From positions 20,166,001 through 20,230,000 of the forward strand of contig NC_090295.1 in the NCBI RefSeq assembly GCF_037392515.1: 64,000 bases of DNA, given 5' to 3'. Below, one piece after another: positions 24,901-62,700 of the stretch. Source of the DNA: Haliotis asinina. Lineage: Eukaryota > Mollusca > Gastropoda > Lepetellida > Haliotidae. The notes beneath the pieces were generated by a model, which worked only from the letters and a program-made list of their open reading frames with translations, ran no database searches and was not told the DNA's origin. Both the position numbers and the translations under genes were made by a program. How positions within the stretch are numbered: position 1 is the stretch's first letter; the number at the start of each line of letters is the position of its first letter.

Positions 24901-27900
24901 ATTCTCTGAACCTACACTTCTTCAAGGGGGAATTAGACAATAGATTTCTCCCACACTATTCTGTTGACTAAAAATAACCACAGCCTAGTTAGGGGAGTAG
25001 TCAACCAAATTGAGGTACAAGCATTTACATCTGCAGGTCAACAAAAACATTCCAAATCCTACAAATTTCACAAAACATTACTTAGAAATAGAGGATGTAA
25101 TTACAGCATATAAGTTATGCAATAATATTGATAACAACACCAAATACAGTGTTTAAATAATACTTTACTAGTTTCTGGACAGCACGTAAAAGTAATGGAG
25201 TAGCCTCATGAAGAAGGATGTACATACCAGACACCAGCAGGTGAGAGAGTCGGGAGAACAAGTCATGTGACTGTGGCAGGCGGAATGGCTCGGCTGCCGT
25301 TTCTCCTCGATTCTGAAAGATAAAATCAATACCTCTGAACTTCTTCCAACTTCAGTGACTGGTATCAATGTCTTATACCTACCTTCCATATAGGCAAGAG
25401 AAAAATCAACCTTCTTGACAGACACCAGTTTGTCGTGAGTGAGCTAATTGTCTTACACCTAACTTCTTGACACACACCAGTTTGACAAGAGTGAGATCAT
25501 TGTCTTGACAGAACAGTTTGAGGAAAGAGAGAGCATTGTCTTACACCTACCTTCTTGACAGACCCAAGTTTGACGAGAGCAAGACAGGCATTCTGGGCCA
25601 GCAGGAAGTCATCCTCGGCTCGTGGGCCCAAACCTTCCTTGATCAGTACCTCAATGTTACTCTTCACCATTTCCATCTCCGCCCTATGGAAAACAGTCAG
25701 GTGTCAACATTGTCATGGTGTTTTGTATGCATAAACATAACATAACTGTTTATGTGAAATAACATACTCTGGCAACCACTAAATGGCTGAGATGCTAATC
25801 TGAATTATTTCACTACACAATAACTACACATCATCATTGTTCAACATGTTTGTGTCTTCGAAAATGAAACACAAAAGGTTTATTTAGGACAAATTGTATG
25901 TGTCTTTTCAACAACATTCCAGCAATATAAATTCAAGGGAAACAATAAATGGGATTCTCACATATTGCACCCACGGGCAGACTTAAAACCAGGTGTTCAG
26001 TGTAATGGGTGAATGCTTTAACCACCAGGTTTGCCTAATCCCTTACAGCTTCTCATTACAGTCAACATTAATTTTAGATGCAGTATTATTCATTATATTA
26101 TCATATTATTACTTTAAATTTTTATTCAAAACCCTTTTATGGCTGATAAATATATTATGTCTTGTCTTGAATTTATTAAAACACATATATGGGACAGAAA
26201 TTTGCAAATCAAAATTATCAGAGAAAGAGGAACTGCTTGACAAAAACAACGCATGAACTATTAAAAAACAAATAACTTGAACAAACGTAAGATGTTTTAA
26301 CTGCAGGCCAGGTAAAAACAAACTGCAAGTTGGTACCAAGCTTGACCAATACAGAACCAGCGTGCGGACAGTCACACATGGAGGCCTACCGCTGATTGAA
26401 TCTCCGACTGGGGATATATCTTGTAGGTAAAAAACTGAAGTTGTCATACCCAGCTGCCATTGAGAGCAGCAGCAATGCTGCACGGCTGTCTGATGCTGTT
26501 GTGTTCAGCACCTTCAACGTGAACCTCTCCCACAACATCTGTATCACTGGTGGCCCAATCTCCCCGCTCTTGATGAACTCAACAATCTGTAGCACACAAT
26601 AAAACCAGATACATAGACAAAAACTAAATACATGAATCTATTCAAACCAGGTGAACTTTTTATGCAAATGAAGAATTCAGATGAGTATATCTGATTACTG
26701 TTTTTCAAATACAAATGGCCAGTTCTAAATGCAGACGACAATGGATAGACCATGTTATTGTTGTGGAAAATTTACAAGTTTGCAAATTAAAGACACTGAA
26801 AAACTGATGCAGAAAATGATCTCAAAAAAATTTGTAGAGGAAAGTAACTTTGGTTAATGTTATTTTGAACAATATCTGTCATGAAAAAGAAAGACAGCTT
26901 GTCCCCAAGACAAGCCCGTCACATTGTGCCTTCAGCACTCAGGTAACACCAACAAGAAAGGTGGTTACAAACCTACAAACATAATCAAGCAAAGGCAACG
27001 ATTCTGGTATGCTTGATCTTTATGTAACTGTGCTGGTGCTGAGAAGTTTGTATCATATTGGGTCTGAGAAAATGAGGAGGAGGAACTGAAGTCAGACATA
27101 CCAGCCCTTCCAGTGATGTAAGGTCACCCAATGTTGCTCCGACGGTGAGAGCTGTTAGATTTGTCACGATGGCAAGGGCTTTTGACCTGTTACAAGGGCA
27201 AACAGAATCAGGTTGATCAAATGACTAACTGACATCTGTGAACTGCACTTCAACACATGATGGGTACAAAAATTCTACAGAACTAGATGTTTCATATTCA
27301 TGTTTCAGTAACATGTCTGTTGGACATTTATCAGGAAATGTCTTATGCACATTACCTCAAGCTCCGCTCAAAAGAGATCAGACAGTTATTGATTTGCCAT
27401 TCTCTGGAATGGCTACATCAAGTATGGACGGAAGTGCAGGAACAGAAGTGACGTGATCTCCCCTCCCACACAAGCGCAGACTTTTACTGAACAGGCCTGA
27501 AGAGCCCACAGAGGGGAGAAGCATCCAGCATTGGGAGGGTGTTACCGTCCTAGGTAAGTATTTAAATATGACAGTAGGTGTTGAACTCCAGAGGACCATC
27601 CCACTACAAGATCACATGGCAAGGGGAATCTGGGAAGACTAACTGAAAGACAGTCACAGGTAACATATAGTAACCCAGCACACCCAAGGCGTGAGTTACC
27701 CTTAAGACCAGAAGGTAAGGAGACGTAGTTACCTAATGGGTGGAAGGTCGGGTGAGCTGCTGGGCAACCACCAGTGAACCGAACGATTGAAGGCACTTCA
27801 TGTCCTCCACTGATAGTGGCTAGCAAAGACCATCAAAGATTTCTAAAAGCACCACTCTCATGAAACCCTGAATGGTGCAGTTCCTGTGAAGAGCCATAGT

Positions 27901-30900
27901 GGACACCAAGGCCCTAATCTCGTGAGGATTATTGGCTGAAGGATGAGGAAGATCTCGCTCTTCATAAGACAACTGTAAGTAGCCAGAGCACAGTGGAGCA
28001 CAATATTACCCACACCCTTTGCTGAAGTGGAAAATGGGATGAATAGTCTTGTATGAGGCTGTCTCCTGGGTGCTAACTTGGTAATGTACATCCTAAGAGC
28101 CCGCATAGGACAAAGCATTAGTTCCACAGCGTTGTGGGGTTCTAATATGGAAGACAATGGAGGAATGAAGAACATTCTGTCCAGTTGTCCTGGCGATTGA
28201 TTCTTTGCCACGAAATCCCAAGAAAGTCCCAAGTGAACATGACCATGCTGGGACTGCCCAAAACGCACCCTGTGACATTCAGCGCATGGATCTCTCTAAC
28301 AACCATGGCTAGTGACAGGAGAAAAGCTGTCTTTGTGGAAAGATTTTCAAAAAGAGCAGTGTCCAAAGGTTCATAAGGAGGGTCCCGCAGATGCTCAAGG
28401 ACGATGGAGGAGGATCTTATAATCTTCTGATCCACCAGCTTGAAGGCTGTGAACACTGCAAAAGCTCTGGCACCTTGGATATCTGCTTGTCGCACCTGAC
28501 TCCCCAAACAGCCCTTGAGTCGCCAGGACTGATGAGAACTGAGGAAAGGAACTGAGGAGAGGCTTTCAGCGGGTCCTTGGACTAACGTCAAAAGGCATCC
28601 ACTTATATTGTGGAAACTCTAGCCACATGCGTGGAGAAACCATGGGCTTCAATGCTTCCTGCAGATGGAACCGAAATGGCTTAGGATGCAACTGGTGACT
28701 GTGGGGATGCCGGAGCCGGTGAATCCACTCTGGTGCCTGATACGGATTTCCATTGGCGAGGCAGTGGAGGTCTGGAAACCACGTCCTGGTTGGCCACCAT
28801 GGCACAACCAAAGGATTCCTCCTGCCATGTTCAAGAGTCCAGGAAACCAGAATGCAGCACAGTGGTTGTCCTGGCCAATGCTGCTCGCAGGTCTGCCAGT
28901 TGTGAACTTTCCGCAGTAAGTAGACAAATGGTCAATCCTCACACATTCTTTACTCTTAAATCCACAACTGCCGCCCATGTTGCAAATTCCAAAGCTGAAA
29001 TGGGTTTCAGCATTCAACTAAATTCTGTATCAATCTTCGAATCCTGCACACGATAGAAGGCCTGAGGAAAGCTGGTAAGCGCTTCAGTGATTCATAATGC
29101 ACCGCTCCACCATTGGCAAAATCAAAGCTTTGAATCTTATAATCACCCTTGTGTGACTTCAGAGAATTGATCATCGAGTTGAGTGATGATATAGCAAAAT
29201 TTGCATCCAGGAAGGCAAAGGCATTGGCAATCATTGAGTGAGATGACAAAAGCAACTCCAGTGAAAACTTTTGGGTTGTCAGTACCTCAAGATGGCAACA
29301 GGCAATTAGGCAACCTGTAGGCAATCCAATCATAGACCACGGAGAGGGGAAAGTAAATATCCCCATCATTTGTCTCCTCTAGCATCTCCTCGTTATAATC
29401 TGGGAAGAAATAGCATTCCACCGAATCATCCCACGAAACAGTAGGCACATCATGCTGCTAACTGGAGGTTGAAGACGTTGGGCGCTGAAGAGCAGAGGAT
29501 GACTGAGGCTTTTTGAAAGAAATGTATGTAACATCCGGAAAACATGAGTGTAGGCAATGCGGCAACCGGTGAGGAGGCAGCGACCTAGACTGGGATCAAC
29601 GATGACACTTCCTGAGAGTCAGGGATCTGGAACATCTCTCCCTTTCTGTATATTGCCAGGTAGAGTGAGACCTAGACCTGGATCAGAGGCGGCGACTATG
29701 GCATGGGCTCCTAGATTGGCAACAAGACCTGGGTGAACTGTAGTAAGACTCTCTAGAGCGCCAGACATGCTCCTCCAATAACTGTCGTTGTAAATCCTCT
29801 TCACAACAGATTGTAGAGGCGTAGGCGCTGGTTTATGCAGCAGCTCAAAAACGTCAGCATGTCGGTGCTGGAACCACAGTAGACAAGGTAGAAGTCGGTG
29901 CTAGCGTCGGCGTTGTAATGACACCAGATTGAGTAGTCACTGTTGTCGGCATCTGGCTGTGATAGGTCGACGAAGGCATATGACAAGAACTGAGGTTCTG
30001 GCGTTGGTCTACGCAGATTAAAATAGAGCCTTGGTTATGCGCCTGAACTGTTGATGGAGAGGGATGGTTGTCCAGTGTCCGTGGCAGAGAGGATCATGAT
30101 CCCAAAGATGAAGCCAGGGAAGACATCTTCCTGTTGCACTGCATAAACCACTTCCTTTTTGCGAGAAACGCGAGAAACACTTTAAAGTCAGGGACAGATA
30201 ATGAAGCAACACTCAGTTAGAGTACAAGATACCATGGCATGGTCCAGGCACCAGGGATAGGGGTCCATCGCAGATTTCTGCACTTTGCCGATAGAACAGA
30301 ATAGTCATGTCATACATACAAGACTGACACAAATATGTAATTTTCTGAATAAATTTGATATTTTATACTTATCCTGACTCATGCTTAATTGCTTATCTCC
30401 TCCTGCCTGGAGAAGGTAGTGGAATACTTGAAATCCCTTGAAGTTCCCTTCTAAAGAAGCGGACATAAAATATACTCACCCACCGGGAGCCTCCCTTTTT
30501 CCGCCAAAACAGTCACATGACTAACCATGCTTGTCACTCTCCCCTCATTACCAAGGAGGAGGAGATAAGCAATTAAGCATGATAAAATAACAACTTTAAC
30601 AGAGATAATATATCAGTAAGTAGTTAACTTAGTGAAAACCAAAAACGTCTTGACTCAAAAGACACTTGAGGTAAAAGTGAATTTTTTTAATATGCTGCCC
30701 TTGCCTAGGAGGGGAGATCACGTCTTCCGTTCCTGTACATTCATCCATACATGAGGTAGCCATTCGAGAGAACGGCAAATCAACAATTGTCTGATCTCTT
30801 TTAAGCGGAGCTTGATGTAATATGCATAAGACCTATGGTACGGTAAGTTTAAAAATAAGTTTACAAGGTAATAGGCTCCACATTTTCAAGAACAGGCACA

Positions 30901-33900
30901 GAACTTCTCTGAAATTACAGATATGAAACCAATTCCATCTGTCCCTAGCCACAGTAGCATTTGTTTTGATCTCATACAGATGAATAAACCAGTGACATGC
31001 AGGCTACAAAGGATCGCTCCTCACCTCTGGTTCCCACCCTGGGGACTGAGGTACAGCCTCTTGTAGGCTGCTACCACCGCCTCCTTCACCCCTGACTCCT
31101 TCGACCACACCAGCGCCAACATACGCCTGATCCCCAACATCGTGGCTGTCACACCAAACTCAAACCCTGTCACGAAGAACTCGATGGCCTCAAACACATC
31201 AGACGTGTTCTTAGATCCCAAGAGTTGGCAGATAGTTGGGACAGACGTCTGCACTTGTTTGGCAAAGGTCAGAGAGTCCTGGAATGCACATGACAGAAGT
31301 CTTCAATGTACAAGAGGTCATTTATTTGAGCTTAAAATTGTATGAAAAATCTCATAATATGATCACTATAAGGTCTGATGACATCTCTGGTATCGTGATA
31401 AACCACCGAAAAAGACTATGATAGATAAAATCACATACATATTTAAAACCTCCAACTTAATACAAAAATTCCACACACCTCACTTTCCAAACCCAACACC
31501 AAGTCCTGATGTTCTGCTATACTTACATGCACAGCCATTCTGTTCAATTCCTAGCATACTGTAATCTCACAAACTTACAATCCAAGTACTGTCTGAACCT
31601 AAGTATCACTGACATCCCAGATATCCTCATCTTACATGGTGGGCGGTGGGGTAGACAAGTGTTCGCTCATCACACTGAAGGCCTGGGTTTGATTCCCCAC
31701 ATGGGTACAATATGTGCAGCCCCTGTATGATGTCCCTCACCGTAATATTGCTGTCAACTCACTGTCACTGACCTTACATGAGTGTCCAACAGCTTATCTG
31801 CATTTGCATGAAATTGCAACAAAGAGTGAATGGGTCTAGTTTTACTACCTTTTTAGCATAATTTCAGCAATGTCACAGCAGGGTGACACCAGAAATGGGC
31901 TTCATGCGTTGTACCCATATAGGGAATCACACTGCCCTCCACTGACCCAATGGCAAAAGTAAAGTCTGTAGTCTGGAAGACAATCTTTCCTTGGGCGATA
32001 ACATTTATTTCATGCACCTTTGTGATGCAATAGTTCCACCATATGATGATAATATTATCTGGGATAGCCACAGGAGTGGACGATTGCATGACTAACAATC
32101 CAGGGTGATTAAAGAAAATATTTCAGCAATATTCTAGCAATATGTGTCTACACCAATCAGTTGATCAATAACAAAAGCATAGATCCACCTAATTGGGAAA
32201 TGGTGATAATATAACATTAAAGGTTGTGGTACTCATGGAGAGACAGAGTTATCTACCTTGAGGTACTGGACAAGCACCTGCTGCTTGCACACCTCACTGG
32301 CAGCATCTCCTTCCCCTGCTTCTTCGGTGGAAGACACGTGGGCCAACTTCTTGTTGCCTGAAATGGTCCAATAGACTCATATATGGTCATATAGTTTCAT
32401 ACACTATTTTTTTTTAAAGGTCCTAACAAATAATTTGTCAGCTTAACATGATATGAGGCAGCATAGAGTAAAAGTGTCTAATGCTTTACTACCTTGGCAG
32501 TTTTCAGGGAAATGCCATAAAATTGCACTCCAAAATTTAGTTGTCTCTTCCAGTTGAACGTCAGATGTAAACAAGAAATCAAGGGAGTAAACAGACATAG
32601 TTGTTAACCTGGGGACATTAAGAAAGTAACTAGTCCTGACTAATTTTCCACTGAATGACCTGAATGTTATAACGTAATCATGATGTTGTAACTATGAAAA
32701 AATAAATCAACATCTTACTTGATGGCTGACTGGACTATTTATTGAAACAGTGATAAACAGCAAAGAAAATAACTCCACTTTACTATCACTGCAAAATGTA
32801 ATGGCTACATTTTTAGCAGATATGAAATGACATCCAAGTTTATTTGCAGTTTGAAACTGTAAGCAGTAATTATCTAGTAGCCCACAGACAAGTAAGATGC
32901 CATTATTTGATTGCCTGAAATGAAAACTGACTTGTCCCGGGTGTGGGACCCACTCAGTTTCATGTTGAATTTCAATTACTGAATAAAAAAAGAACAGGTG
33001 ACAAACATTCTGCTGTCTGACAACTAATGATCTCTCACCTAGGAAGATCTGCTTCAACTGTGCGACTGTTTCCGACACAGGATCTACCTCATGCTTGTCA
33101 ACACTGAAAAACAGCAAGACAGTACCATTATCATAGTTATCATTGAAAGACATTGTTGCAGCAAAGAAGCCTGCTTAGGGCAGATGGTTAGGTTCATCAT
33201 CAGCAGTTGCCCCTTGCTGCCAACACAGTGTGAATGAGAAGGAAGTGCTGACCAGTTGAAACCACCAAGAACTACTTGATACTTTTTTGAGTAAAGTCTG
33301 TTTTAGTTTTACATTGCAATAATGTACCCATCATCATCAAAGTCGTTATCATCATCTTGGTTTCTGTTACTACCAAAGTCTACTCCTGTTGTGTCATTTC
33401 AAATCTGAGCCCGTGAAGGTCCCGAGGTAGAATAGGCCTTCAGCAACCCATGCTTGCCATAAAAGGAGGCTATGCTTCTTGTAAGAGGCGACTAACAGGA
33501 TTGGGTGGTCAGGCTCGCTGACTTGGTTGACACATGTCATTGGTTCCCATCTCTGCAGATTGATGATCATGTTGTTGGTCACTGGATTGTCTGGTCCAAA
33601 CTTGATTATTTACAGACCGCCACCATATAGCTGGAATATTGCTGAGAGGCGTAAAACTAAACTCACTCACTCACACTCACTCACTCAAATCTGGGTTCAT
33701 GGAACATAGGTCATTTTGATAAATAATCTGTGCATTATTTATGCAAAGAAACAACATTAGAAACAGTGTGTTGATATTGTCAGTAGCAATGTTTGTTACA
33801 TAAACACATCAGATTTTGAAGAAAGGAGTGTTTTCTTTAACATGCAAATGTATTGCACTCAAAATATTCGTCAAAGGATTGTCACCCTTACCAGTGAGCA

Positions 33901-36900
33901 TCTTTCTGTTCATCATTCTCTTCTTTCTGCTGATCATCTTCGCTCTGACTTGTCTGTCCATCCTCATCAGTCTGTGTTGTCTGCCCTCTTTCCTGGTCGT
34001 GTCCCCTAGGTGCCAGGTCTGGCCATTGCTGCTGTGTGGCTGACAGGACCTTCACCGCAGACAGGTACCGACCTTCCAGGAGCAGGTGGTAGATCCTTGT
34101 CAACTGACTGCAATGCAGGGATATCATGGATGTAAAATGTCACAAGCCTGATTTCATGGTGGCAGAGATTGGGAGTGTTTGGGAAAGGTTTGGAAAGGAT
34201 CTAGGATGGGTTGCATGATGGTTTAGGGTGGGGACTGAGTATAAGAGAAGGTTTGACTGAATGGGTGGACATGTGATTAGGAGCGCGGAAGGGAGGTGGG
34301 AGGGAACGGAGTGGGAAGGGAGGAGTGGAAGGGACAATCAGAAAGGCTGAGTCACAAGATGGGTAGGGGCAGAAAGGGATAAGAAAGTGGTGGGAGTGGT
34401 CATCCACACAGGGAAAACTTTGAATTGGTGTTGAGACCATCTACAGCCAATACTCACTACATCAGGAAGACTTCTTAGACAAATAACAGTTTTTCATTTA
34501 AGCACTGAATGACTGTGATTCTCATGCCTGGCAAGTGAAGTCGTCCTGAAATGTGCTTACCTTGCAACACTGACACATTCCTGACATATGTGCTTACCTG
34601 TGGACATTGACATAGTCCTGACATGTGCTTACCTGGCAACAGTGATGTCACCCTGACATACACTCTTGAAAAAAGTGGATCTTCATGTTTTTATATTTAT
34701 GATTTAAGATATTTAGGAGATTTACCGAGTCCATCAATGTTGATATGGTATTATTGAATGTTTTGAGGGTGCATCACCATTTGCACTTTCTTACAACCAT
34801 GGTTATTTGGAAAGTAGTTGCTTTTGAAAGATGATTGGTGTATGGCATGTAATTTGCATGTATACGGTTTTCATTTTAAAACAAATGACTAGAAACAAAC
34901 AAATGTGTGATGCAAGATGAGTGTCAAACTTAATGTTCTACGTGATTTATCGAAATTCTTGAAACTCAAGAATGGGACCCCATGCATGTGTATGGGGCTA
35001 CTGCGTTGTGCACGTGCATATCATGCATTGTGTTTAGGGGTAGTAATAGAGGGAAATGGCGTTCATAAAATGCCTGTCCTTGAACTGTTTGTTACCGTTT
35101 ACACCTCTTATCCAAATTGAAAGTTCTTTATACCCTACTTTTTTGTGAAGGGTACATGTTCTCACCTGGCAACAGTGATGTTGCCCTGACATACATTCTT
35201 ACCAGGCAACAGTGATGTCATCCTGAATGATGTCCTCACCTGGCAACAGTGATGTCGTCCTGAATGATGTGCTCACCTGGCAACAGTGACGTCGTCCTGA
35301 ATGATGTGCTCACCTGGCAACAGTGACGTCGTCCTGAATGATGTGCTCACCTGGCAACAGTGACGTCCTCCTGACATATGAGCTCACCTGGCAACAGTGA
35401 CGTCTTCCTGACATATGAGCTCACCTGGCAACAGTGATGTCCTCCTGACATATGAGCTCACCTGGCAACAGTAATGTCCTCCTGACTGATGTCCTCCTGG
35501 CTGTCCTCATCCTGTGTGTCCTGGCTGTTGTCTTCATCCAGGGCAGCCAGCAGTTTCTCCTCAACAGCCAGCCACTCTCTCTCAAAACCTTCCAGCACGT
35601 CATCTAAGACAGAGCATGATTTCATCATCATATTCAGAAACTTCTGACAATATTGCCATCTCCATGAGTTTTTTGTTTTGAAAATATTCTTTCTGAAAAT
35701 AAGTTACAATTGTCGTAGGAATTAAACCATATTAATGCTTACAAGTGCCCTAAGGAGCATCTCTAAATAAACATATGGAACTAAATATTTTTGGCCACTG
35801 GAACACTAATATCACTAATGTTATCAAGAGCTTGCTTACCGTCTTCTCATCATAGGAGTATCCTTGCATGTGAATTTCCTTTTGCATTCAATAATAATAA
35901 CAAAAAGGTTTTGTTTTGTCAACAGATACATATATATTATTTAGATCTTTTACTCGCTCCCCAGTGTCCAAATGTGTCTGCAAAGGGTATTTAGTTTGGA
36001 GTCCCAAATAACTACCCAGTGCATCTCTGTGGATACATACCAGGGATGGGCTGTGGGAGATGTTCTACTGGCTTCATGGCCGCCAGCTTCTCCACCTCCT
36101 TCTGATGGTTCAACTCCAACTTCTCCATTGGCAACTGTAACATCAGATGTAAAAACAACTAGTCATACAGACTGTCTATACTGAATTTACCATTTCAGCC
36201 ATAATATCTAACATGCTCGAGTTTACTGTAGCCATGAAAACCAGTCTGAAAATCTTGGTATTTGGGATAATGATTAACATGTAAGGCCAACATCCTCTAG
36301 CTTTGCTATTTGAGTGCCAAGTTCTGAATTTCAAGATTCTTTTGGAAAATTATTTAACAATCATGATTATAATTTGAAACACTTCAGGCTTATGTACACC
36401 CAATGCTATTTGAGCACCTAAATCTTGGTCAACACCTGAGTAATAAATGTGTCTAATGGCTCAAAAACTTTTACTCATCCCAATTTTTAATGAGATAGCA
36501 AGTGTTTCTACCATTTATACAAAGAGTCCCCAATTTGTTTAACAGAAATTTCTTCAGAGTACCAGAATTCCAAACACACCAGCCAGTACTCACCTTGGCA
36601 GCAAAGGGGTTATATTTGAGTAAGGCTGTCATCAGCTGGATGGCATACCTCCGAACCTGGCTCGACTTGTCTTGGAGACGACCAATCACCTTGGTAACCA
36701 GGTGCTCTTGGCGTGGCAGTGGTAGACACTGGGCATCCAGGTAGAGAACATAAGATAGCTCATTAAAACAGTTTACCTCAGAGTAAAATGTCACAGAGCA
36801 AGGAGTGGACTGATAAGTCTGAGACATTTTAAGCTCTTTCGACCTATTCTCCCTTCAATCAAAGAGAATCTGGTCATTATTGGGCCAACATATTTACCAC

Positions 36901-47700: not shown

Positions 47701-50700
47701 ATCACTCTCCATAGGCAAAGTACTCACTCATTCACACTGAAGATCCAGATTCAATTTACCTCAGGCACAATAGTTGTTGCCCATTTCTGGTTCCCCCCAC
47801 TGTGATAGTGTGAACTTGCTGGTATGCTGCTAAAAGCCATACAAAACCATACTCACTCACTCACTCCAGTCTCTCTCTTTTTTGTAGTACCCTTTACATC
47901 AGTGCTTCTTTCTGTTCACAGTTTAATGCCATTGAAAGAGAGAACCGACAACACACCAAAGCCAGTGGACACACAAGCTGTGGTCAATGCACTCAGGGAA
48001 AGAAGGCAACACATAAAACCAGTCTTGGGCTTGGGGGGATACTATTTACTGCTTAACCTCAATACAACAAAGTTCTATGAACTATGATGTTTAATGTTTT
48101 CAAGTTCATAAATAATCGTCACAATCTTCTCATCATTTCCTTTCTCTTCCTCATTGTAAGCCTGACACAGTCTTGATTTCTTTTGCAAACAGAACATTTC
48201 AGAAAATTAAATTAGGCAGATTTTGTTTCATAGCCAGGCCCACAGGTTTTCATTTGCAACCTGTACATACTACCTGTACTGAAGGATTGATAAATTGATC
48301 CTGTTAATGATATCCTTCCAACATTCATGGAACTAACAACATTTGTATTTTGTCTATTCCAGGAAAAGATCACTTGTTGTTGCAGTAGAAGATGACACAC
48401 TTTTTGAAGAATCAGGTCAACATGCCAAGAGAAGGTGATTCAGTGTAGTTTGTTCTCACTTTGAAAACTTATTATTCATGTCAAGACTGGAAATGACAAA
48501 TATTGGCAGAAGTGAAAACCCGTACTCAATATGTAGAGTTGTGTGCCTAACCCTGACATGAAAAGAATGTCTGATGTTGACTGTCATTATGTCTAACATC
48601 CTAACTGCTTGAGTGAAATGATGGTCTAAGATAAGTAACATCAAAAAGGCTTAATTGTGAACAGCTGTACAAGTGTTAGTAAACTTAGTTTCAGCATTAT
48701 TCGTCACAGTCCTCTACTGAGTCTGGCAGGTGGACCTTGTAGGAGGTCACATCAGGTACCCTTTCACATTGACCAATCAGAGCACAGCTTACCAAATCAC
48801 GAATGTGGACATTTGCACAAACCTTTTGAACCTCTACTTCGAAAAGGTTTGTATCTGAATGATTCTGAATGCTGTTTTCAGTACGGTCACTTCCAGGTGA
48901 TGCACATGGACCATGCTACAATAATGTTAACAATGAGTAAACAGTCACTGAAAAAAGTGTGTTTGTCAGTATTCACTAATTCAGTTTGTGGAAATATTAG
49001 CTAATAGTAACCACGTCATCAAAAAGCCCTTAGCATATATACTCCAGGTTAAATATTCTTTTGTGTGTGGATTCTTTTTGTTGAAATATCAGTGTCAGTG
49101 ACTGGGGAATTTTCTAAGCCCCACCAAACCCTAAACAGTAACCATTGTCTGGATAAATCTGTTCGTTCCTTTCACATTTGATTGGATGGTCACAGGTTAC
49201 TCAAAGGTTACCTGATGCGACCTCCTACTAGGTTGTAAAACTCAGCGTGGAATTGTAACAAATGATACTGAGACTAAGTTTACTTAGACTGACAGCCATA
49301 TCAAACTGTGTGCTCTGAAACTCCTGGGCACCCGTGGCGAGCCACCTCATCGTGGTGGGTGCTGGGTAACGCCAAGAGCTCGCCGACATCCCCGTAGTGG
49401 ACCCGGGGGGATATTTGGTCCACCAACCCGTTTGCCATGGGTTGCAGCCCTGTGTCGGCGGAGGAGGGGATCCTGGTGGTTGAGAGTAATAGGAGCTTGC
49501 AACCGTGTTCCTGTTGCTCAATACACCACTTCGGCCCTGACTTCGCCTAGACGGGTGGTCGAATAGGCCCGGTTCGACCAATCGGCTGGTCATGCCAAGC
49601 CCTGTGCATGGAGCATTATTATATTTATCAATGCACATATATCATTTGGAATCGTTGTAAATTTGGACTTGGCTTTATAATCTAAAACATGTTGAATTTG
49701 AAGTATGTTGTTCTGTAATTTGCCTAGAGTCCTATGCCAGAAGGCGGTGGCTCATGGGCCAATCTGGTAGAATTATTAATCTCTTAATTCTTCTGCTGGA
49801 GTATATCATCCGGGTATCCTTGGTGCTGCAAGCTGGAGGCCCGCTTGCTTTAGCATTGTCCTTGTGATACTCCGTGGTGGGTGGGGAGCTCGGATGATGA
49901 ATCATATGACACCAATCATGGCTTATGAAATACCCCCCAAAAAAACCAAACGTCCACTTGAAATTGATCCCGTTGATACTTCTCATAGACCGTCTCTATC
50001 GATTGAGTATTGGCCACGTTTCCTCGTTATTGAGACTCCGGACAAGACACCATTGAAGTTGAACCCTTTCGCAGTATCTAAGGGCATTCAAGGTATTGCT
50101 GGGGATGTCAAGAACATTAGACGCTTGCGTTCGGGTGCATTGCTAATAGAGTGTGGCAAGAAACAGCAGACAACCAATCTGATGAACATTGAATCTTTTG
50201 TGGGCATTCCGGTCACGGTCTCTGCTCACAAGACCTTGAACACAAGTAAAGGTATCGTCAGAGATTGTGATCGGTTGTTTGCTGACATGTCCGAGCTTGA
50301 TATAGCATGCGAAATGAAGGATCAAGGTGTGCTGTATGTGAAGCGCTTTTCCACCCGAAAAAACAATGAAACAATCCAAACAAATACCTATCTGTTTTCT
50401 TTTTCATTGCCAAATGCTCCCAAATCAGTAAAGGCGGGTTACTGCAATATCCAAGTTGAAACCTACATCCCCAACCCGCTCAGGTGTTTTAAATGTCAGA
50501 AATATGGACACGGTGTATCTACCTGCACATTGTCTGTTGTGTGTGCTCACTGTGGTGAGAAGACACACACAACAGAAGATTGTGACAGTGACTTTAAAAA
50601 ATGCACTAACTGCTCTGGCGACCATTCATCTTCGTCAAAACAGTGTCCAATATGGAAAGAGCAAATGGCGATTAACAAAATAAAGTTCACCCAAAATATC

Positions 50701-53700
50701 TCTTTTTCTGAGGCAAAGAAACTGGTGAAGAGATCTGACCTTCTAGAAAGTTATGCTACAGTAGCAAAATCATCATCTGAATTCAGCTCTAAAATAACAA
50801 AATCATCCACAGGATGCCAAACTACCTTGACTTGGGTCAGTTCCGACTCCCCACAGGTTTTATACCCTGCTATATCATCCCAGACTGAGGAATCACTTCC
50901 TACTACATCAAAGTCCTCTGATCATAAGTCATCTTCACAGTCACGCTCTGAGTCTCATTCAACAGCTGATAGACAACAAATTGTTAAAACTAAACCCAAA
51001 CCTAAGTCAGATGCTTCAAAACAACAAAGTGGCAGAGCTCCTAAGGGGTCACAAAATAAAATTCAATTGTTTAATAAATATGGGTCTCTTGAAGATATGG
51101 ACGTTTCTGAAAACGTCCATTCTAGGGCACATAGCTTGTCGCCCTCCAAAAGAGTGCGGGGTAGATCCCCAAAAAATCCCCCCAAAAGATAGTTTATTCC
51201 AATAATATTGTACAATGGAACTGCAGAGGTTTGAGGGCTAATTTACATGAATTACAGCTATTAGTCCAAGATTTCACACCTTCAGCGTTATGTCTCCAAG
51301 AGACATATTTAAAACAAACAGATGCATTTGACCTTCGCCATTTTAATGCATATCATTGTTTTTCACCTCTGGGTGATAGGGCCACTGGCGGATCATCCAT
51401 TCTAGTCAAACAAAATGTTATTCAAAGCCCTGTTTCACTTAATTCTAATATGCAGGCTGTTGCAGTGAGAATTATTTTACATGTAGCGTTTACGCTATGC
51501 TCTCTTTATATTTCACCATCTTCGGCTTTTGCCAAAACCGATCTTCAAGCTCTATATGATCAGCTCCCAAAGCCCTGTATTATAATGGGAGATTTAAATG
51601 GCCACAACCCACTCTGGGGTAGTGTAAATACAAACACTAGAGGTAAATTGTTGGAGGACTTTTGTTCTGACAATGATTTATGTATTTATAATGATGGTTC
51701 CAACACATATTTACACCCTGCTACAGGGACTTATTCTGCTCTCGACTTGTCACTTACAAATTCAGAACTATTTAATGAATTTGAATGGTCAGTCCACGAT
51801 GACCTCTGTGGAAGTGACCATTTTCCTACTATATTAAAAGCTGTAACTCCATCTGATGTTCCTCCATCATCAAAGCGGAATTTTACAAAGGCTAACTGGA
51901 CTTTATATGAAACACTGTGTGCTGAAAAACTTAAACCCGAACTTTTTATTGACGTTCCTGATGCTATTAAATGTTTTACTGATGAACTGAATTCCATAGC
52001 TGATGAGTGTATACCAAATTCCTCTGTAGTTCCACACATAAGAAAACCATGGTTCAACGATGAGTGCAAACAAGCTAGGAAGGCAAGGAAAAAGGCAGAA
52101 CATTATTTCCGTCGCCATCCTATGGTACATAATTTAAATAAATTTAAAATTTTAAATGCTAAAGCGCGGCGTACTTTTAAACAAAACAAACGCCAATCTT
52201 GGCAAAATTATGTGTCCAAAATAAATTCTCGGACACCCATGTCCAAGGTATGGAACATGGTCCAGAAAATCAAAGGTAAAGGTACTAAATCTACTGTCCA
52301 TCATCTCAAACATGGAGATCAATTGCTTACTGATAAATCAGATATTGCTAATAAACTAGGTGAAACCCTTGCTAAACACTCTTCCTCTTCAAATTATGTA
52401 CCAAAATTCCAGCAATATCAAAAACAACAAGAAAAGAAAACTATTAATTTCAATTCTGATAATGGGGAAGATTATAATGAAGCGTTTTCTATTCATGAAC
52501 TCCATACTGCTCTTGATCAAGCTCATGACACTGCTACTGGAGCTGATAACATACATTATCAACTCCTGAAGCACTTACCAGAATCCTGCCTAGAAACTCT
52601 TCTCAATATTTTTGATGATATTTGGACATCGGGTAACTTTCCTCCCTCATGGCGTGACGCCATAGTAGTACCCATACCTAAACCTGGACGTGATCATACG
52701 GATCCATCCAATTATCGTCCGATTTCATTAACTAGCTGTGTTTGCAAGACCATGGAACGCATGATAAACAATCGACTAGTTTGGTACTTGGAAACAAATA
52801 ACCTTATAACTGATATACAGTGTGGTTTCCGTAAAAACAGAAGTACTGTCGATCACTTAGTGCGTTTAGAATCATTTGTTAAAAATGCACTAATTAATAA
52901 ACAACATACTGTGTCTATCTTTTTTGATCTAGAAAAAGCATATGACACAACCTGGAAATATGGTATTTTAAGAGACCTACATGACTACGGCTTGCGAGGT
53001 CGTTTACCTCAATTTATAGCAAATTTTTTAAAGGACAGACAGTTTCAAGTTCGAGTGGGTTCTACCCTGTCTGATCATTACAATCAGGATCAGGGTGTTC
53101 CACAAGGCAGTATTTTGTCTGTCACACTTTTTAGCATAAAGATAAACAGTTTATCAAAAGTTTTAAACGATTCAATTGATGGATCATTATTTGTGGATGA
53201 TTTTAATATTTCTTGTCGTGGGAAAAATATGCATACTATTGAACGACAACTGCAGTTGTGTTTAAACAAAATAAATAAATGGTGTCTTGAAAACGGCTTT
53301 AAATTTTCTAAATCCAAAACTAACTGTATACATTTTTGCAGAAAATATAAACCACATAAGGACTCTGAACTATCTCTAGATGGCACTCCCATCAAAGTTG
53401 TAAAGGAGGCCAAGTTCTTGGGCCTAATCTTTGACTCCCATTTAACATTTCTGCCTCATATCAAGTCCCTTAAAACTAAATGCTTGAAGGCTCTTGACTT
53501 GTTGAAAGTTGTTTCCAACACAAAGTGGGGAGGAGATCAAGCAACCCTCTTACACCTGTATCGATCACTCATACGTTCGAAACTCGATTATGGTTCCATC
53601 GTATATGGTGGAGCCTGCAACAGCAACCTTAAACTTCTTGATTCTGTCCACCATCAAGGCTTAAGACTTTGCCTTGGGTCTTTCAGAACTTCACCTATTG

Positions 53701-56700
53701 ATAGTCTCTACGTTGAGGCCGATGAACCATCTCTTACTCAACGTCGTATAAAATTGTCTTTACAATACACTACTAAATTATATTCTGATGAATCTAACCC
53801 TGCCTATAACTGTGTGTTCAATCCCCTTTATGAAGATTTGTATAACAAAAAGTCTTCTCTTGTTCCACCTCTTGGGCACAGAATTAAACCATTTATTTCT
53901 TCTGCCGGTATTGAGCTGGAAAGTATATCGCCTTCCCGTCTTCTTTCTTCTCCTCCTTGGCAGTTGGTTAGGCCACAAGTTGACCTAACATTAACATTTT
54001 TTAAAAAATCAGAAACAAATGACTTACAATATAAACAAGAATATCATCAATTAAAGCATAAATATAGCAATTACAAACCTTTATTTACAGATGGGTCCAA
54101 GGATGGTGGCGCAGTGGCTTGTGCCACTGTCATTGGATCCAGAACAATATCTTCTAGATTACCAGATAATAGTTCTATTTTTACAGCTGAAGCTAACGCC
54201 ATATTAACAGCTCTCAAATATATTCAAAGACACCCGAAACGTAAACAATATATAATCTATTCCGATTCTCTTTCTTGCCTTCAGGCTATTAAAAATATTT
54301 CTTGCAAACATCCACTTTTAATAGAAATTATTGAATTGTATAATGATCTTGCTACTGGCCAATACGACATCGTCTTTTGTTGGTTACCCAGCCATGTAGG
54401 CATTTCTGGTAACACACTGGCTGACCTTGCTGCTAAAGCAGCACTCAACAAATCTGTGACACCACTTCTTATTCCTTATAGTGATTACAAAGCCACCATT
54501 AGATCTTATATCCGTGATCTGATGCAAAAGAAGTGGGACACCCAAGTGGGTATCAATAAATTACATGAGACAAAACCTTACATTGGTTATACCCACTTGG
54601 GTTGTCAGTCCAGATTTGAAGAGGTTATTTTGCGACGATGTCGTGTTGGCCACACTAGATACACTCATGCGTACCTGTTAAAAGGTGAAGATCCTCCATT
54701 TTGTATCCCTTGTGATGAGAGAGTCACGGTCAAGCATATTCTGCTTGACTGTGTTGAATTCTCCATCACAAGGGATAAGTATTTTACAGTTAAAACAATT
54801 AAGGATCTTTTTACCAGCGTTAATTCTCATTTAATTATAGGTTTTTTAAAAGAAATTGATTTTTTGGTTGAATTTTGAATAATATGTTTCTGTAAATAGA
54901 TGTATTTTAATGACTGGTAGTTTGAATTAGTAACTTGAATTGTTGGTGGCTGTACCCTCAAAGGGGGTTGAAGTATTGTAAAATTATTGTCCTCCTGAGA
55001 GGGTACGTAAGTCCACAAACATGCAAAGTAAATTCTAAATTTCCACGTTTTTAATGGTAGTATAAGTGTATTTTTATTGTATGGCTAGATTTCCGAAATT
55101 GCTGATGGCTGAGGGGATGATGTAAATCCAGCTAGGGTCCATGCAGGTAGCAAAAGTACTGTAAGTCCCCATGGTCCCTAGAATGGTGATCTACCTTCAG
55201 TTGTTGGCAATCTATAGCCCGGTTTTATATTGTATTGTCCTCTATAGATAAATTGTTTTAGGCATAGCTACTAGTTTTACATTCATTTCTGTGATGTTCT
55301 AGTTTTTTACTGTCCTTCGTCGACTGATTGTTATAATACTCATATATTCCATTTTAATGTTCCGTTCCCGTCACGATATGGCTGAAATATTGCCGATGTG
55401 ACATTAAATTTTAACTCACTCACTCACTCACTCACTGAAACTCCTGTTATTAAAACGAAAGAAAATATTTTACAGTTTGTGGTTGTTGCAGGCGTCAGGA
55501 AAGTAGCCAGTCGACAGCTTCCTCAGCATCTCTGCCACCAATGCCAGATAACCTGCCGGACCTGTCAGACAAGAACGTGATGATGCAGCTGGATGAGGTC
55601 AGTCTGAAGCGTCCGTCTGCTCCCAGCAGGGAGGCCATGGAGGAGGCAGAACAGGACGTCAGTGTTGCCAAGCGACAGAAGAACACGCGTAACAACCCCA
55701 TCACCAGCTCACTCAGCTCTAGCAGGAGGATTCTGATCAGAGAGGTACATGTCGATAAATATTTGATTGAGACTTAGTGAATATGTCCAGCACTGGTTCT
55801 TAATTCCAGTCACTAAACCATATTCAGTTGCAGGGAGATATTCCTCTATGAATCCAGGGATCAAATTTCGGAAAACTTTCACAAATTGCATCCATTACCA
55901 TGATTCTTGTGATTACACATTAACTGCTCTTTAATTTCATTTCAAACATCAACATGAAAGAAAGGGTAGGGGAGATAACTCATATTACCCAGAAACCTCA
56001 GGGTCAGGCTGGTGCCTTCTTGTTGTTGCCAACACAACATGGAGGCGTGTTTGTAACTTGAATTCTGATTGATATGTTATAACACAAGTTGCATAACCAA
56101 TCAACTTTGAAAATGTAAGTCTAGGAAGGGATTATGAGATTGTGAGAAACCCAGGAATTGATCATAGGAGCAGGACAGGTTTAATGACGTGATCCCAGGG
56201 TGAAAGTAGATGTTAGTAGAAGAAGATGGTCATGCCCTTCAGTGAGGAAAGTAAAGCTGGTCCCAAAAGCTGAGAAAATCTAGAACTCATCCCGCATGGT
56301 CTATCAGCAAAATATTGTGTTTGTGGATTTTACAACATGGTTGTATCTATGATTTACATTGATAATTTAATAATAATAATGTGTCCATTTATATAGAGTA
56401 AACTCCAATCCAGCTATGCTTATAGTGCTAACAATGAATAGCACAGCACATTATAACCCCGGATAAACCAAGTTATACACAAGTCAGCCATGGTCACATT
56501 ACTTATCCCACTGATTACCTATTTTAAATGAATTCAGTTGCCTAAGGTGAAAGCAGATGTATGACCTGTGCTTTGTTGTCGGGCAGGATTGAAGTCATAG
56601 AAACTCTCAGAAGTCAAGCTGCCAAACATTGTCACCCATCCAAGGACTCGCGTCCAACATTGCTCAACTTCACCTGGTTTGTGACCTGAGCTCTGTGCAT

Positions 56701-59700
56701 TGTCATACAACTAAAAGAATATCAAAGGGACACAACACACTTCTGGTCTTGCCTCAAGCATGCAGCTCCATCATGCATTACCAGCTTGCATCAACTAAAG
56801 CTTGTTGATATGATAATTGTTGTCTTGTCCCTATCACCTGTCTTGTACTTAATACGGCTGTATTGTTTGAAAGATGTTGCCATGACATATTTTTTTCACA
56901 CTTCAGAGAATAGAAGCCAGGAGTAAGACTCCTCTGTCTCATCTAGATGCAGACCTTCCACGAAGCAAGAGGCGAGCTACTGACCAATCTCCGGCCCCTA
57001 CAACCGATATCCCTGAGACAGTGTAGGTGTCATGTCAACCATGTTGAAAATGTCCATCAGATAGGATAGGTGTCATTTTGAGAATGTCCCTCAGACAGTG
57101 AATTTCTCATATCAGCCATGTTGAAGTATAGGCGTCATGTTAGCCATCTTGAAATATCCCTCAGAGGGTGTAGGTGTCATGTCAGCCATTTTTCAAATGT
57201 CCTCCAAATAGGATGTGTCATGTCAGCCATCTTGAAAATGTCCATCAACAGTATAGGTGTCATGTTACAGAGATGGCAAGCACTCTGATTTTGGAGGAGT
57301 TACTCCGATTTTCAAACACAAAATCTACTCTGTAGAAAAACCTGACGTTTAGAAAATACAAATATGTTTATGAATTTAGAATCTTTGAAAGAATTTTAGT
57401 AGATAGCCATTTGATTATGTTCATTTGAGTTAAGTATTATCTGGTTAAGTATGCCCAGAAATTGCATATTTCCAGCAGACAAAATCTGGTGTTGTAGGGG
57501 AGGCCCCCCAGACACAAACCATGAAAAGGGTCGTGATCCCCGTCTCACCCTCACCCCCAACTTGCACCTTCAGGGTTCGAGAATTGCTTTGAGCAAGGCA
57601 TGACTTTACTTCTGGAAAATGTCCCTCTGATAGAATGGGGGTCATGTCGGCCTCTTGAAAATGTCCCTCAGGTGGGATTGGGGACATGTCAGCATCTTGA
57701 AAATGTCCCACAAATAGGATAGGGGGCATGTCAGCATCTTGAAAATGTCCCTTAGAGAGGATTGGGGGCATGTCGGTCATCTTGAAAATGTCCCTCAGAG
57801 AGGATGGGGGCATGTCAGCCATCTTGAAAATGTCCTTCAGACAGGATTGGGGGCATGTCAGCAACTTGAAAATGTCCCTCAGAGAGGATTAGGGGGCATG
57901 TCAGCAGTCTTGAAAATGTCCCTTAGATAGAGTGGGGGGCCTGTCAGTCAACTGAAGCCCTGTAATAACTTGCACGTTTTCTGCTTTGTTCCAGGGATGG
58001 TGATTCTGTCATGACTCCAGACTGTGAAGAAAACAGACTTGATGCAGCCACTACTGAATCTGTTAGTCAAGATAAGGTACCTATTTTAAATTAGTAATTT
58101 CTTCTCGACCTGACTCTTGCTTATTATGCTTATGTCCTCCCTCTATGCAAAGATAGTGGAAGACTTGGAATCTCTAGAATTTCGCTTCTACCTGAAGCTG
58201 ACGTACAATACACTCACCCATCAGAGCCTCCCTTTTCCGGTCACATGACCAACCACACTTGTCACTCTCTCCTTCATCACCCGACAAGGACAGTTGGAGG
58301 CATTTTGGGAACTGATATTGCAGTAACAGTAGCCTTTTGCTATATACAGGATCTTATGATGTATTATTTTCTCGGTTTCCATGGAAACGTTTCGGACCTA
58401 TTCTGAAAAGTGAGAGGTGTGTTTCGTTTCCAGAACAGAACTCAAAAACTTCTCAATATCTGTGAGTAAAACTTGGTAGATATGTGTGGCAGACCCCAAA
58501 GTGGTGCCTTCTGCTATTTACAGGTTTTTGTGATTTAATTTTTTCTCCGGTTCCATGGACACATTTCGGACTTAGTCTCAAAATGGAGGGATAGGCTTCG
58601 TTTCTGGAGCATAACTCAAAAACTGTTCTATATTTTTCTGCAAAACTTGGTAGATATGTGTGGCAGACCCTAAAGTGGTGCATTTTGCTATTTACAAGTT
58701 TTTGTGATGTATTATTTTCGCGGTTTCCATGGAAACATTTCGGACATAGTCTCAAAAGTGAGAGGTGTGTTTCGTTTCCGGAACAGAACTCAAAAAGTTC
58801 TTAATATCTGTGAGTAAAACTTGGTAGATATTTGTGGCAGACCCCTAAGTGGTGCATTTTGCTATTTACAGGTTTTCGTGATTTATTATTTTCTCGGGTT
58901 CCATGGACACATTTCGGACTTAGTCTCAACATGGTGGGATAGGCTTTCATTTTCAGAGCACAACTCAAATACCATTTGATATCTTTCAACATATCTTGGC
59001 AGATATATGAGGCACATCTTGAAGTGGTGCCTTTTGCTGTTTACAGATATATGGCATTTATATTTTTCATGATTTCCATAGAAACGATTCAAACTTAGTC
59101 TAAGAAAACATCAAGTAACCTTCAGATGATTTGTCCTTTCAAATATGTGGGGTGATATGTCATGTTCTGATGACTCTTGTTTATCAAAATTGATATTTTA
59201 TACTTATCCTGACTCATGGTGTCGAGCCCTCTTAACCGTCCCTCTCAGGTACACTGAATTCACAGTAATTCTCATGTAGGGCTTATGAGACTTCGGAGAG
59301 AGTGATAAGGATGTTGGTCTTGTGACCCTCTTTTGGGGGAAAGGGAGACTTCAAGTGGGTGAGTGTTTTGTACATCCGATTCAATCAGATGGGAATCTAT
59401 GAGTCATGATAAGTACAAAATGAATTTTATTTAAAAAATTACGTAATTGTAATTCAAATTAAGAGTAATCATTCTGCTTCATTATTATCTTGAAATCCTG
59501 GAATGTATTGATACAGAATGGTTCAATGTTTGACTGTAATACCTGTTGTAAAGTGACAAATACAGTATGTACTTTACAGAAAGCATGCCTTTGAACTTGC
59601 AATTATTTTTGTCAAATTTTACAAAACAGGCTCTTTGTTGCAAAAATATTCAAGTGTTTCTTTCCTAGTATTTAACACATCAGTTGTTATCAAGACTTAA

Positions 59701-62700
59701 AATGTCTTCATATATATGTGATGTTTTGTTTGTCCAGTCATCCACACCATCCAGTAAGACATCGACACCCAACAGGAGATTGCAGCTGGATGGTGTACAC
59801 AAGCCAACAAGACGGAGGAACCTGTCCTTGTACCCAGGCTTGAATTCTTCATTTGCTGGGGTGAGTGTCCTGAAGTAATCAGTCCTGTCCCAGGAGTTTA
59901 ATATTTTTGGTGTCGGTATTTTTAAGTAATCAATCCCAGTACCTTGCCTTCCTTACTTCATAAGTTGGGTTTAGTATTCTGTAATCTGTCCCAGAAGCCA
60001 GTTGTCTCACCCTTTACCTTGGCTGCAGTGCTTCATTTGCTGGTGTTAGTACCACAGTAGTCTCACCCTTTACCTAGGCTTCAATGCTTCATTTGCTGGT
60101 GTTGGTACAACAGTAATCTGACCCTTTACCTTGGCTTCATTTGCTGGTGTTAGTACCACAGTCGTCTCACCCTTTACCTTGGCTTCATTTGCTGGTGTTA
60201 GTACCACAGTCGTCTCACCCTTTACTTTGGCTTCATTTGCTGGTGTTGGTACCACAGTAATCTGACCCTTCACCTTGGCTTCAGTGCTTCATTTGCTGGT
60301 GTTGGTACCACAGTAGTCTGACCCTTTACCTAGGCTTCAGTGCTTCATTTGATGGTGTTGTTACCACAGTAATCTGACCCTTCACCTAGGCTTCAGTGCT
60401 TCATTTGCTGGTGTTGGTACCACAGTAATCTGACCCTTTACCTTGGCTTCAATGCTTCATTTGCTGGTGTTGTTACCACAGTAATCTGACCCTTTACCTA
60501 GGCTTCAATGCTTCATTTGCTGGTGTTGGTACAACAGTAAGCTGACCCTTTACCTTGGCTTCAGTGCTTCATTTGCTTGTGTTGTTACCACAGTAATCTG
60601 ACCCTTCACCTAAGCTTCAGTGCTTCATTTGCTGGTGTTGGTACCACAGCAGTCTGACCCTTTACCTTGGCTTCAAAGCTTCATTTGCTGGTGTTTGTGC
60701 TACAGTAATCTGACCCTTTACCCAGGCTTCAGTGCTTCATTTGCTGGTGTTGGTACCACAGTAATCTGACCCTTTACCTAGGCTTCAATGCTTCATGTGC
60801 TGGTGTTGGGACCACAGTAATCTGATCCTTTACCTTGGCTTCAATGATCAATTTGCTGTTGCTGGTATTCTGTACTTACCTGTCTCTGTATTTTTGGTAC
60901 AATATTTGTAATTCAGTGGGAATCTCAAATTCATTTGTAAAGGTAAATATTCTGTAGTCAGAACCCAGACTTGAATTGTACATTTGCTGAAGTTTCTGTT
61001 CCCTACCCTGTACCCCATGTGCTAGGACTGGTATAACGTCCAGAGGTATGTAAACTGATCTTGCAGTTGACTGCTATTCAGGTACCAGTGGCGCGAGTGT
61101 CAGCTACAGCAGATGACTATGAGGCAGATCGAGAGGCTGAGCGGCAGCGAGTGCAGGACATGTTGGAAGATGCCGAGACATCCATCAAACAGAAGAGCAT
61201 TCCAGGTGCAATAACAATACAATATAGGAAAAGTTCAGTCAATAGTTCAGTAGCCATGGCCATCCTCCAGTCTGTGAGTGAGAGTTTAGTTATACGCCGC
61301 ACTCAGCTGTATTCCAGCTATATGGCGGCGGTCTGTAAATAGTCATGATCAACAGCATGAGCATCGATCTGTGCAACTGGGAACCAGTGACGTGTCAACC
61401 AAGTCTGTGAGCCTGACCACCCAATCCCATTATTCACCTGTTAAGACAAACATAGTTGCCTTTCGTGGCAGCATGGGTTGCTGAAGGCCTGTTCTACTCC
61501 AGACCTTCACAGGTTCCAGCTACTTGATGGAACACTTTCTTGTCTTCAACTTGATGGTTGGTTGGTTGGTTGGTTGGTTGGCTGGTTGTTACATAAAGCT
61601 GCACCCTGTAGTGTTCCAACGATATGGCAGGCCTGTCTGTAAATAATCAATCTGGACCAGGCAGTCCAGTGATTTATGTCAGTGTACACAATGAGAACAC
61701 AGTAGCATGTGTCAGCTAAATTAGTGAGTCTGACAACCCGATGCCTCTTACCTCAAGGTGTCATGGGGCAGTCCAGTGGTTAAGGCGTTCACCCATCAAG
61801 CTGAAGACCCGGGTTCAATTCTCCACCTTTTCACAATATGTGAAGCCTATTTCTGGTGTCCCCAGCTGTGAGATTGCTGGAATATAGCTCAAGGCAGTAT
61901 AAAACTCACTCACTCACAAAAGCATGGGTTGCTGAAGATCAATTTTAGCATGTATCATCACATGTAGTTCCAGTTGTATGATAGTGGTCTTGAAATAATA
62001 GATAAGTAGCAGGGGCCCCTTTCACAAAGCTCTCATAAGCCTAAGATCTCGTAACTTTTCTCGTAGCATTCGTACCTCCTATACCATAACATAGGAAGTA
62101 GGAATGCTACGAGAAAAGTTACGAGACCTTAGGCTTACGAGAGTTTTGTGAAAGGGGCCCCAGGTCTGACCATTCTATTATAAGTCACCTCTTCTATAAC
62201 TACAGCAGGTTTGCCTGACAAGCAGTTTGTCGTGATTCCCTGTTAGTGCTGTTACAGTTTGGTGTAAACATGATTCCAGATACTCCATATTCAATTACTT
62301 GTCCCAAAGGGTTGACCTTACAGGTCTAAAGTAGAAATAAAGAATCAGTCCTGGAGACAAGAAAAGATGGAACTTGTTATTACTCTACCTGATGCTTAGC
62401 AGTGAGGGAATAGGAATTGATCGGCTCTGAGTCAGCATACTGTATTTGAGTTGGGTATCCATTTGAAACTACTGTAGAAATGACATTTGTTGCGATGATT
62501 GACACACAAACTTATGCATGTTGCTTTCTGTCTTGAAATTGACGTTGAACCCTTTTACACCTCACAAAGTTAGGGTTTCTCATTTTGGCAGCCACAATGC
62601 CAAATTCCGCAAAAGTTCACAGCCACAATGGTGCATTGTGAAGTTCAGATGAATCTTCCTGGTTGTAAATATGTCTCTTGTTGCAGGTACTGATGCGGTG

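What the first reader, a model, noticed from the sequence alone, without database searches (positions are those of the whole stretch)
25365..60870. Recurrent pattern: intronic arrays seeded by an exon's 3' end plus its 5' splice site in four introns of two genes
NCAPD2 exons 13 (37-bp unit) and 20 (about 50 bp), and POM121 exons 6 (42 bp) and 8 (56 bp), each continue into a tandem array whose unit is a copy of that exon end and its donor. The four sequences are unrelated to each other, so this is a repeated process at splice donors, not one spread repeat. Possible causes: slippage or break repair at R-loops or paused polymerase at 5' splice sites, or selection for donor redundancy. I do not know of a described family of such arrays, but I could not search.
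Basis: partly seen in the sequence, partly recalled or inferred. Interest (0 to 1): 0.88.

Follow-up and report, generated by a model that had tools for sequence, protein, structure and literature searches.

The report
Tandem repeats seeded at exon ends
In two neighbouring animal genes, four exon ends together with the start of the following intron have been copied over and over into that intron; this is real and striking to see four times in one stretch, but the same kind of repeat is already known in a human gene, and the data here do not show that splice sites attract it.

Summary
In NCAPD2 (minus strand) and a POM121-like gene (plus strand), four exons run into arrays whose unit is homologous to the exon's 3' end plus the intron start. 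Junction scores lie 11.9-22.0 SD above shuffled introns: 4 of 42 donors, 0 of 42 acceptors. In NCAPD2 intron 14, similarity to the exon falls with distance, which fits growth at the exon edge; 11 of 12 copies keep a strong donor. The other three arrays have lost most donor copies.

A process specific to splice donors is not established. Donors (9.5%) are about as array-prone as intron interiors (6.8%, or 12.1% without three transposon-filled introns); acceptors (0 of 42) and exon interiors (0 of 315) are free of it. Ordinary minisatellite duplication plus selection against other placements explains this. The human CBS 31-bp VNTR (24 exonic + 7 intronic nt, 16-21 copies) has the same anatomy (PMC2630376 passages). 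Which came first, exon end or array, has moderate support at one locus only. The genome-wide test could not be run.

The parts
35462..35603 (-).
   Evidence: open frame, AG/GT ends; junction z 22.0; unit -23..+14
35156..35461 (-). array block 1 of intron 14: 8 copies at 37-nt steps, each with exon end + strong donor
34660..35155 (-). about 495-bp insert that splits the array; joined flanks continue the 37-bp register
   Evidence: joined flanks score 105 against the unit
34527..34659 (-). array block 2 of intron 14: 3 diverged copies with strong donors and a terminal copy whose donor is lost (GC in place of GT, junction at 34528)
25551..25683 (-).
25366..25550 (-). irregular array in intron 21, about 50-bp unit, exon end + GTAGGTGTAAGACA
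   Evidence: z 17.1; 4 copies
56907..57022 (+). POM121-like exon 6; last 16 nt match the 42-bp unit in register
57023..57265 (+). array block 1 of intron 6 (TRF itself starts at 57125)
   Evidence: z 14.5
57611..57947 (+). array block 2 of intron 6
59738..59860 (+). POM121-like exon 8; last 45 nt match the 56-bp unit (up to 38 of 47)
59861..60004 (+). degenerate copies linking exon 8 to the array
   Evidence: score 72 against 23.7 +/- 5.6, 0 of 500 shuffles
60005..60867 (+). array of intron 8, 56-bp unit, 15.8 copies
60963..60989 (+). isolated further copy of the exon 8 end
   Evidence: 24 of 27 identical; flank against unit 5 of 500 shuffles

Best explanation
These are four independent minisatellites that began as short tandem duplications (about 37-56 bp) spanning an exon-intron junction. 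In such a duplication the upstream junction can go on serving as the donor, so the second copy, exon part included, falls into the intron and is free to multiply and decay by replication slippage or unequal exchange. Duplications of the same size that span an acceptor, or that lie in an exon and are not a multiple of 3, change the message and are removed by selection. Donors therefore take part in minisatellite growth at about the intronic rate while acceptors and exon interiors do not. Shown: the homology, its continuity with the exons, the donor/acceptor/exon counts. Moderately supported at one locus: the exon as template. Inferred: the duplication mechanism, the selection, and that the first donor is the one used.
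For: Junction homology far above shuffles in 4 of 42 donors and 0 of 42 acceptors. Donor rate 9.5% beside 6.8-12.1% for intron interiors and 0 of 315 for exon interiors. Exon 21's end falls in a stretch that aligns to a fungal Ycs4 across the junction without a gap (6qj3), so coding sequence was there before the array. NCAPD2 intron 14 copies lose identity to the exon unit with distance: 36, 34, 31, 30, 30, 30, 29, 28, 29, 26, 24 of 37. Reading past the donor meets a stop at nt 1 (NCAPD2_14), 51 (NCAPD2_21), 1 (POM121_6) and 15 (POM121_8), so splicing from a register-matched distal donor beyond these points would include a stop. Exon 14 itself holds an in-frame 15-bp duplication (35474-35503), so duplication at this place is not confined to the donor. 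Arrays in NCAPD2 introns 7 and 23 and POM121 intron 7 do not reach a junction.
Against: Four arrays touching the donor is somewhat more than random placement gives (1.72 expected, P = 0.031). Counts are small. In the second, yeast alignment the exon 21 end is gapped, and few of its last residues are conserved, so the exon-first order is only moderately supported there and untested elsewhere. A duplicated intron 7/exon 8 junction of 68 bp is tolerated in human CBS, spliced from the distal site (PMC2630376 passage, which calls it a donor; by position it is an acceptor), which weakens the selection half. No population or related-species data.
Confidence: 0.72

Rival explanations
1. A mutational process specific to 5' splice sites (R-loop, paused polymerase, U1-bound transcript) causes tandem duplication there.
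For: 4 donors against 0 acceptors; P(>=4) = 0.031 for arrays abutting the donor by random placement; identity gradient from the exon edge in NCAPD2 intron 14.
Against: Donor rate is not above the intronic rate (P(>=4) = 0.32 at 6.8%, 0.76 at 12.1%); Fisher 0.058; P(>=3) = 0.17 on the stricter count; POM121 intron 8 shows no gradient from the exon (rho 0.19).
Confidence: 0.1
2. Selection keeps arrays of spare or decoy donors (redundancy, or stop-carrying poison splice forms that tune expression).
For: NCAPD2 intron 14: 11 of 12 copies keep donors scoring 9.1-10.9, above the median of 36 real donors, 8.7, although copies differ by up to 39% elsewhere. A neutral simulation in which at most one lineage loses its donor is met in 31 of 200000 runs with 6 lineages and 1085 of 200000 with 4. 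Every distal donor there would give a stop at nt 1.
Against: 9 of 37 nine-column windows, the donor's own included, are as conserved as the donor nonamer, so it is not singled out. The copy furthest from the exon has lost it. Strong donors are kept in 1 of 4 copies in NCAPD2_21 (offsets 50, 88, 140 lost or weak, 168 kept); in POM121_6 1 of 6 block-1 copies keeps GT and scores 1.3, and the 7 block-2 copies were not scored; in the POM121_8 array core one site of 5.1 occurs. Post hoc choice of one array in four; lineages are not independent.
Confidence: 0.08
3. The exon end was born from the array: an intronic minisatellite came first and the donor slid into it.
For: Possible for NCAPD2 exon 14, whose end encodes an acidic low-complexity stretch outside the range of the PDB match, and for the POM121-like exons, for which no homologue was found.
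Against: Exon 21's end falls in a stretch with fungal counterparts, though its last residues are little conserved.
Confidence: 0.08
4. The introns themselves arose by tandem duplication of an AGGT site (intron gain).
For: [quoted passage not shown]
Against: The intron ends do not match each other: joint scores 12-16 in the four introns, inside the range of the rest.
Confidence: 0.02

Closest known systems
Human CBS 31-bp VNTR, c.1444_1467+7(16_21) (PMC2630376, passages; Lievers 2001 seen only in its reference list, not held)
   Same: By its name the unit is the last 24 exonic nt plus the first 7 intronic nt, 16-21 copies. NCAPD2 intron 14 has 23 + 14 nt and 13 copies counting the exon's own.
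   Different: One locus in human; here four in two neighbouring genes, three of them with mostly decayed donors; no polymorphism or splicing data here.
Internal tandem repeats at human exon-intron boundaries (PMC2812944, passages)
   Same: Tandem repeats that cross boundaries: 162 alignments, 27 intron modifications after inspection.
   Different: Studied in segmental duplications, as variable repeats retained in the exon or spliced out as new introns.
Introns born from tandem duplication (PMC2891723 passages; Zhuo 2007 seen only as a reference, not held)
   Same: Short duplication that includes a splice motif.
   Different: Here the intron ends do not match each other.
Polar minisatellites (MS32, MS205; recalled, not looked up)
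   Same: Growth at one end of the array.
   Different: Here the active end in NCAPD2 intron 14 would be a coding exon.

Membership tests
Donor-spanning minisatellite (CBS VNTR type) | Unit holds exonic 3' end and intronic start | tested here: met
   weakest for POM121_6 exonic share and POM121_8 intronic share
Donor-spanning minisatellite (CBS VNTR type) | Tandem array contiguous with the exon | tested here: met
   in POM121_8 only through degenerate copies
Donor-spanning minisatellite (CBS VNTR type) | Repeat copies carry a donor | tested here: inconclusive
   strong in 11 of 12 copies of NCAPD2_14 and 1 of 4 of NCAPD2_21; GT kept in 1 of 6 scored copies of POM121_6
Donor-spanning minisatellite (CBS VNTR type) | Variable copy number between individuals | not testable with these tools
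   one sequence only
Intron gained by tandem duplication | 5' and 3' intron boundaries match each other | tested here: not met
   joint scores 12-16
Donor-redundancy element | Distal donors used in transcripts | not testable with these tools
   no RNA data

The most novel reading that the evidence does not exclude
The exon edge can act as a master copy that keeps emitting copies of itself and its donor into the intron, so that NCAPD2 intron 14 is a polar, exon-fed array of 12 near-equal 5' splice sites (the true one and 11 copies), kept functional as decoys that lead to an immediate stop and so tune expression; genomes of this lineage may hold many such arrays.
Probability: 0.1. Interest if true: 0.75.

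Novelty: new member of a known kind. Interest (0 to 1): 0.36.

Why it matters
Four junction-seeded arrays in 42 introns suggest that in minisatellite-rich genomes exon ends are regularly copied into introns. That gives a natural series of duplicated donors, from fresh (36 of 37 identical) to decayed, in which donor choice and the cost of spare donors could be measured, and it warns that exon-like fragments in such introns can mislead gene prediction.

Tried and rejected
Rejected: POM121 intron 7 as a fifth case (0 of 100 shuffles as good, but an isolated 24-nt match and controls reach 28). Intron gain (the single high joint score, 48, is the 56-bp intron overlapping itself). An eyeballed likeness of the intron 23 array to the next acceptor (score 14, z -1.1). 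Donor nonamer as uniquely conserved (9 of 37 windows as good, its own included). A POM121_8 in-register test anchored on the intron side failed (7 of 16; 4010 of 20000 random as good); a block test allowing a shift replaced it. In checking this report I found a terminal twelfth copy in NCAPD2 intron 14 without a donor and two more register copies in NCAPD2 intron 21, and reran the simulation. I also saw that the fungal match supports exon-first less firmly than I had thought; I lowered the best explanation from 0.75 to 0.72 and raised the array-first rival from 0.05 to 0.08.

Could not do: the genome-wide and related-species tests.

Paper searches: ten, all answered, on VNTR, minisatellite or tandem repeat with exon-intron boundary, junction or splice donor, on the CBS VNTR and on introns from tandem arrays; they listed 0, 6, 4, 1, 10 of 14, 6, 2, 0, 2 and 1 papers. 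No listed title is a survey of donor-seeded arrays outside human; this covers only that open-licence library and those words. Passages were read in PMC2630376, PMC2812944, PMC12783039 (earthworm intron minisatellites; the passages link them to no donor), PMC2883569 and PMC2891723.
Full report
What was checked. I read the window and built gene models by hand. NCAPD2 lies on the minus strand in 34 putative exons that translate without a stop; Pfam finds Cnd1 and Cnd1_N in its first 1366 residues. Exon 3 is not resolved: as modelled its donor is not GT. The species was not determined; interspersed repeats look like those of abalones, from recall only.

Is the homology real? For each of 42 introns (43 modelled, the 56-bp one left out) I aligned the last 40 exonic and first 15 intronic nt to the rest of the intron and compared with 100 dinucleotide shuffles. 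Four donors stand far out: NCAPD2_14 (score 69, z 22.0), NCAPD2_21 (63, 17.1), POM121_6 (47, 14.5), POM121_8 (47, 11.9). POM121_7 (28, 4.5, also 0 of 100) is an isolated match. No acceptor is comparable (best score 25, z 4.3, 1 of 100). With the exonic 40 nt alone, three remain clear (54, 46, 38), POM121_7 has 27 and POM121_6 falls to 22, where exon-start controls reach 28. POM121_6 is rescued by register: 14 of 16 exonic nt match at a copy found by its intronic part alone, 1 of 20000 random exonic 16-mers doing as well. POM121_8 is continuous with its array through degenerate copies at 59861-60004 (score 72 against 23.7 +/- 5.6), but its donor has decayed.

Anatomy. NCAPD2_14: a 37-bp unit, -23 to +14 around the donor, 8 copies in block 1 and 4 in block 2, the last of them without a donor. 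The blocks are one array split by about 495 bp of other DNA; the flanks rejoin in register. NCAPD2_21: irregular, about 50 bp, 4 copies. POM121_6: 42 bp, two blocks. POM121_8: 56 bp, 15.8 copies. The four units are not detectably related; NCAPD2_14 against NCAPD2_21 is marginal (5 of 200 shuffles as good) and the other five pairs are not.

Which came first? The end of NCAPD2 exon 21 falls in a stretch that aligns across the junction with Ycs4 chains of the PDB: without a gap at the junction in 6qj3, with a gap in 7q2x (the species, Chaetomium and yeast, are recalled). Few of the last dozen residues are conserved. So coding sequence of this length was there long before, which favours the exon as template, but not decisively. 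For the other three the order is not tested. In NCAPD2_14 identity to the exon unit falls with distance, 36 down to 24 of 37 over 11 copies, rho -0.97. That fits growth next to the exon. The copies are not independent, so the p-value is only descriptive. POM121_8 shows no such gradient (rho 0.19).

Is there a preference for donors? Three comparisons disagree mildly. Donor against acceptor: 4 v 0, Fisher 0.058. Placement of nine arrays within their introns: 1.72 expected within one unit of the donor. Three arrays do so with ends that I extended to the exon by hand (P(>=3) 0.17); the fourth, POM121_8, counts only through its degenerate copies (P(>=4) 0.031); one intron, NCAPD2_21, is nearly filled by its array and contributes 0.94. 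Rate of self-similarity at score 40: donors 4 of 42, intron interiors 272 of 4024, or 263 of 2175 without three transposon-filled introns, acceptors 0 of 42, exon interiors 0 of 315. The simplest reading is that donors are open to what happens in introns, while acceptors and exons are closed. P(0 of 42) at the intronic rate is 0.053 or 0.004. Neighbouring positions in one array are not independent, so these rates are rough.

Spare donors? In NCAPD2_14 11 of 12 copies keep donors at 9.1-10.9, where 36 real donors of this window have a median of 8.7; the furthest has GC in place of GT. In a neutral simulation at most one lineage loses its donor in 31 of 200000 runs with 6 lineages and 1085 of 200000 with 4. 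But 9 of 37 nine-column windows, its own included, are as conserved as the donor, the lineages are not independent, and the other arrays have mostly lost donors: NCAPD2_21 keeps 1 strong donor in 4 copies, POM121_6 keeps GT in 1 of 6 scored copies, the POM121_8 core has one weak site. Reading past the donor meets a stop at nt 1 in NCAPD2_14 and POM121_6, 15 in POM121_8 and 51 in NCAPD2_21. The modelled POM121_6 donor is itself weak (2.0), so its exact position is uncertain.

What is known. The human CBS 31-bp VNTR is written c.1444_1467+7(16_21), that is 24 exonic and 7 intronic nt, 16 to 21 times (passages of PMC2630376). This is the same anatomy as NCAPD2_14. Tandem repeats at exon-intron boundaries have been counted in human segmental duplications (passages of PMC2812944). 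Introns born by tandem duplication (passages of PMC2891723) differ: the intron ends here do not match each other.

Verdict. Real, strikingly clustered, and of a kind already described. A donor-specific process remains possible but is not shown. The protein database and the window's own genome could not be searched (and the eleven genome-search runs), so the decisive genome-wide test is still to be done.

Noticed in passing
4510-4925: A 207-bp unit twice in tandem, 100% identical: a very recent duplication or an assembly artefact.
   Followed up: no
49300-55490: A non-LTR retrotransposon in the POM121-like intron 4, with an unbroken 1237-residue frame holding endonuclease, reverse transcriptase and RNase H and a 470-codon frame before it.
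   Followed up: partly
13490-19745: A large element in NCAPD2 intron 28 with, by eye, similar sequence inverted at its two ends, and three long minus-strand frames (962, 565, 435 codons stop to stop); a related piece seems, by eye, to lie in intron 18 (27340-30870).
   Followed up: partly
34660-35155: About 495-bp insert in the intron 14 array with weakly matching inverted ends and TACA at both edges by eye.
   Followed up: partly
58332-59046: 174-bp unit, 4.1 copies, in POM121-like intron 7; holds TTTACAGGT-like motifs but shows no relation to the intron's own junctions.
   Followed up: partly
35474-35503: In-frame 15-bp tandem duplication inside the coding end of NCAPD2 exon 14 (encodes SQEDI SQEDI).
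   Followed up: no
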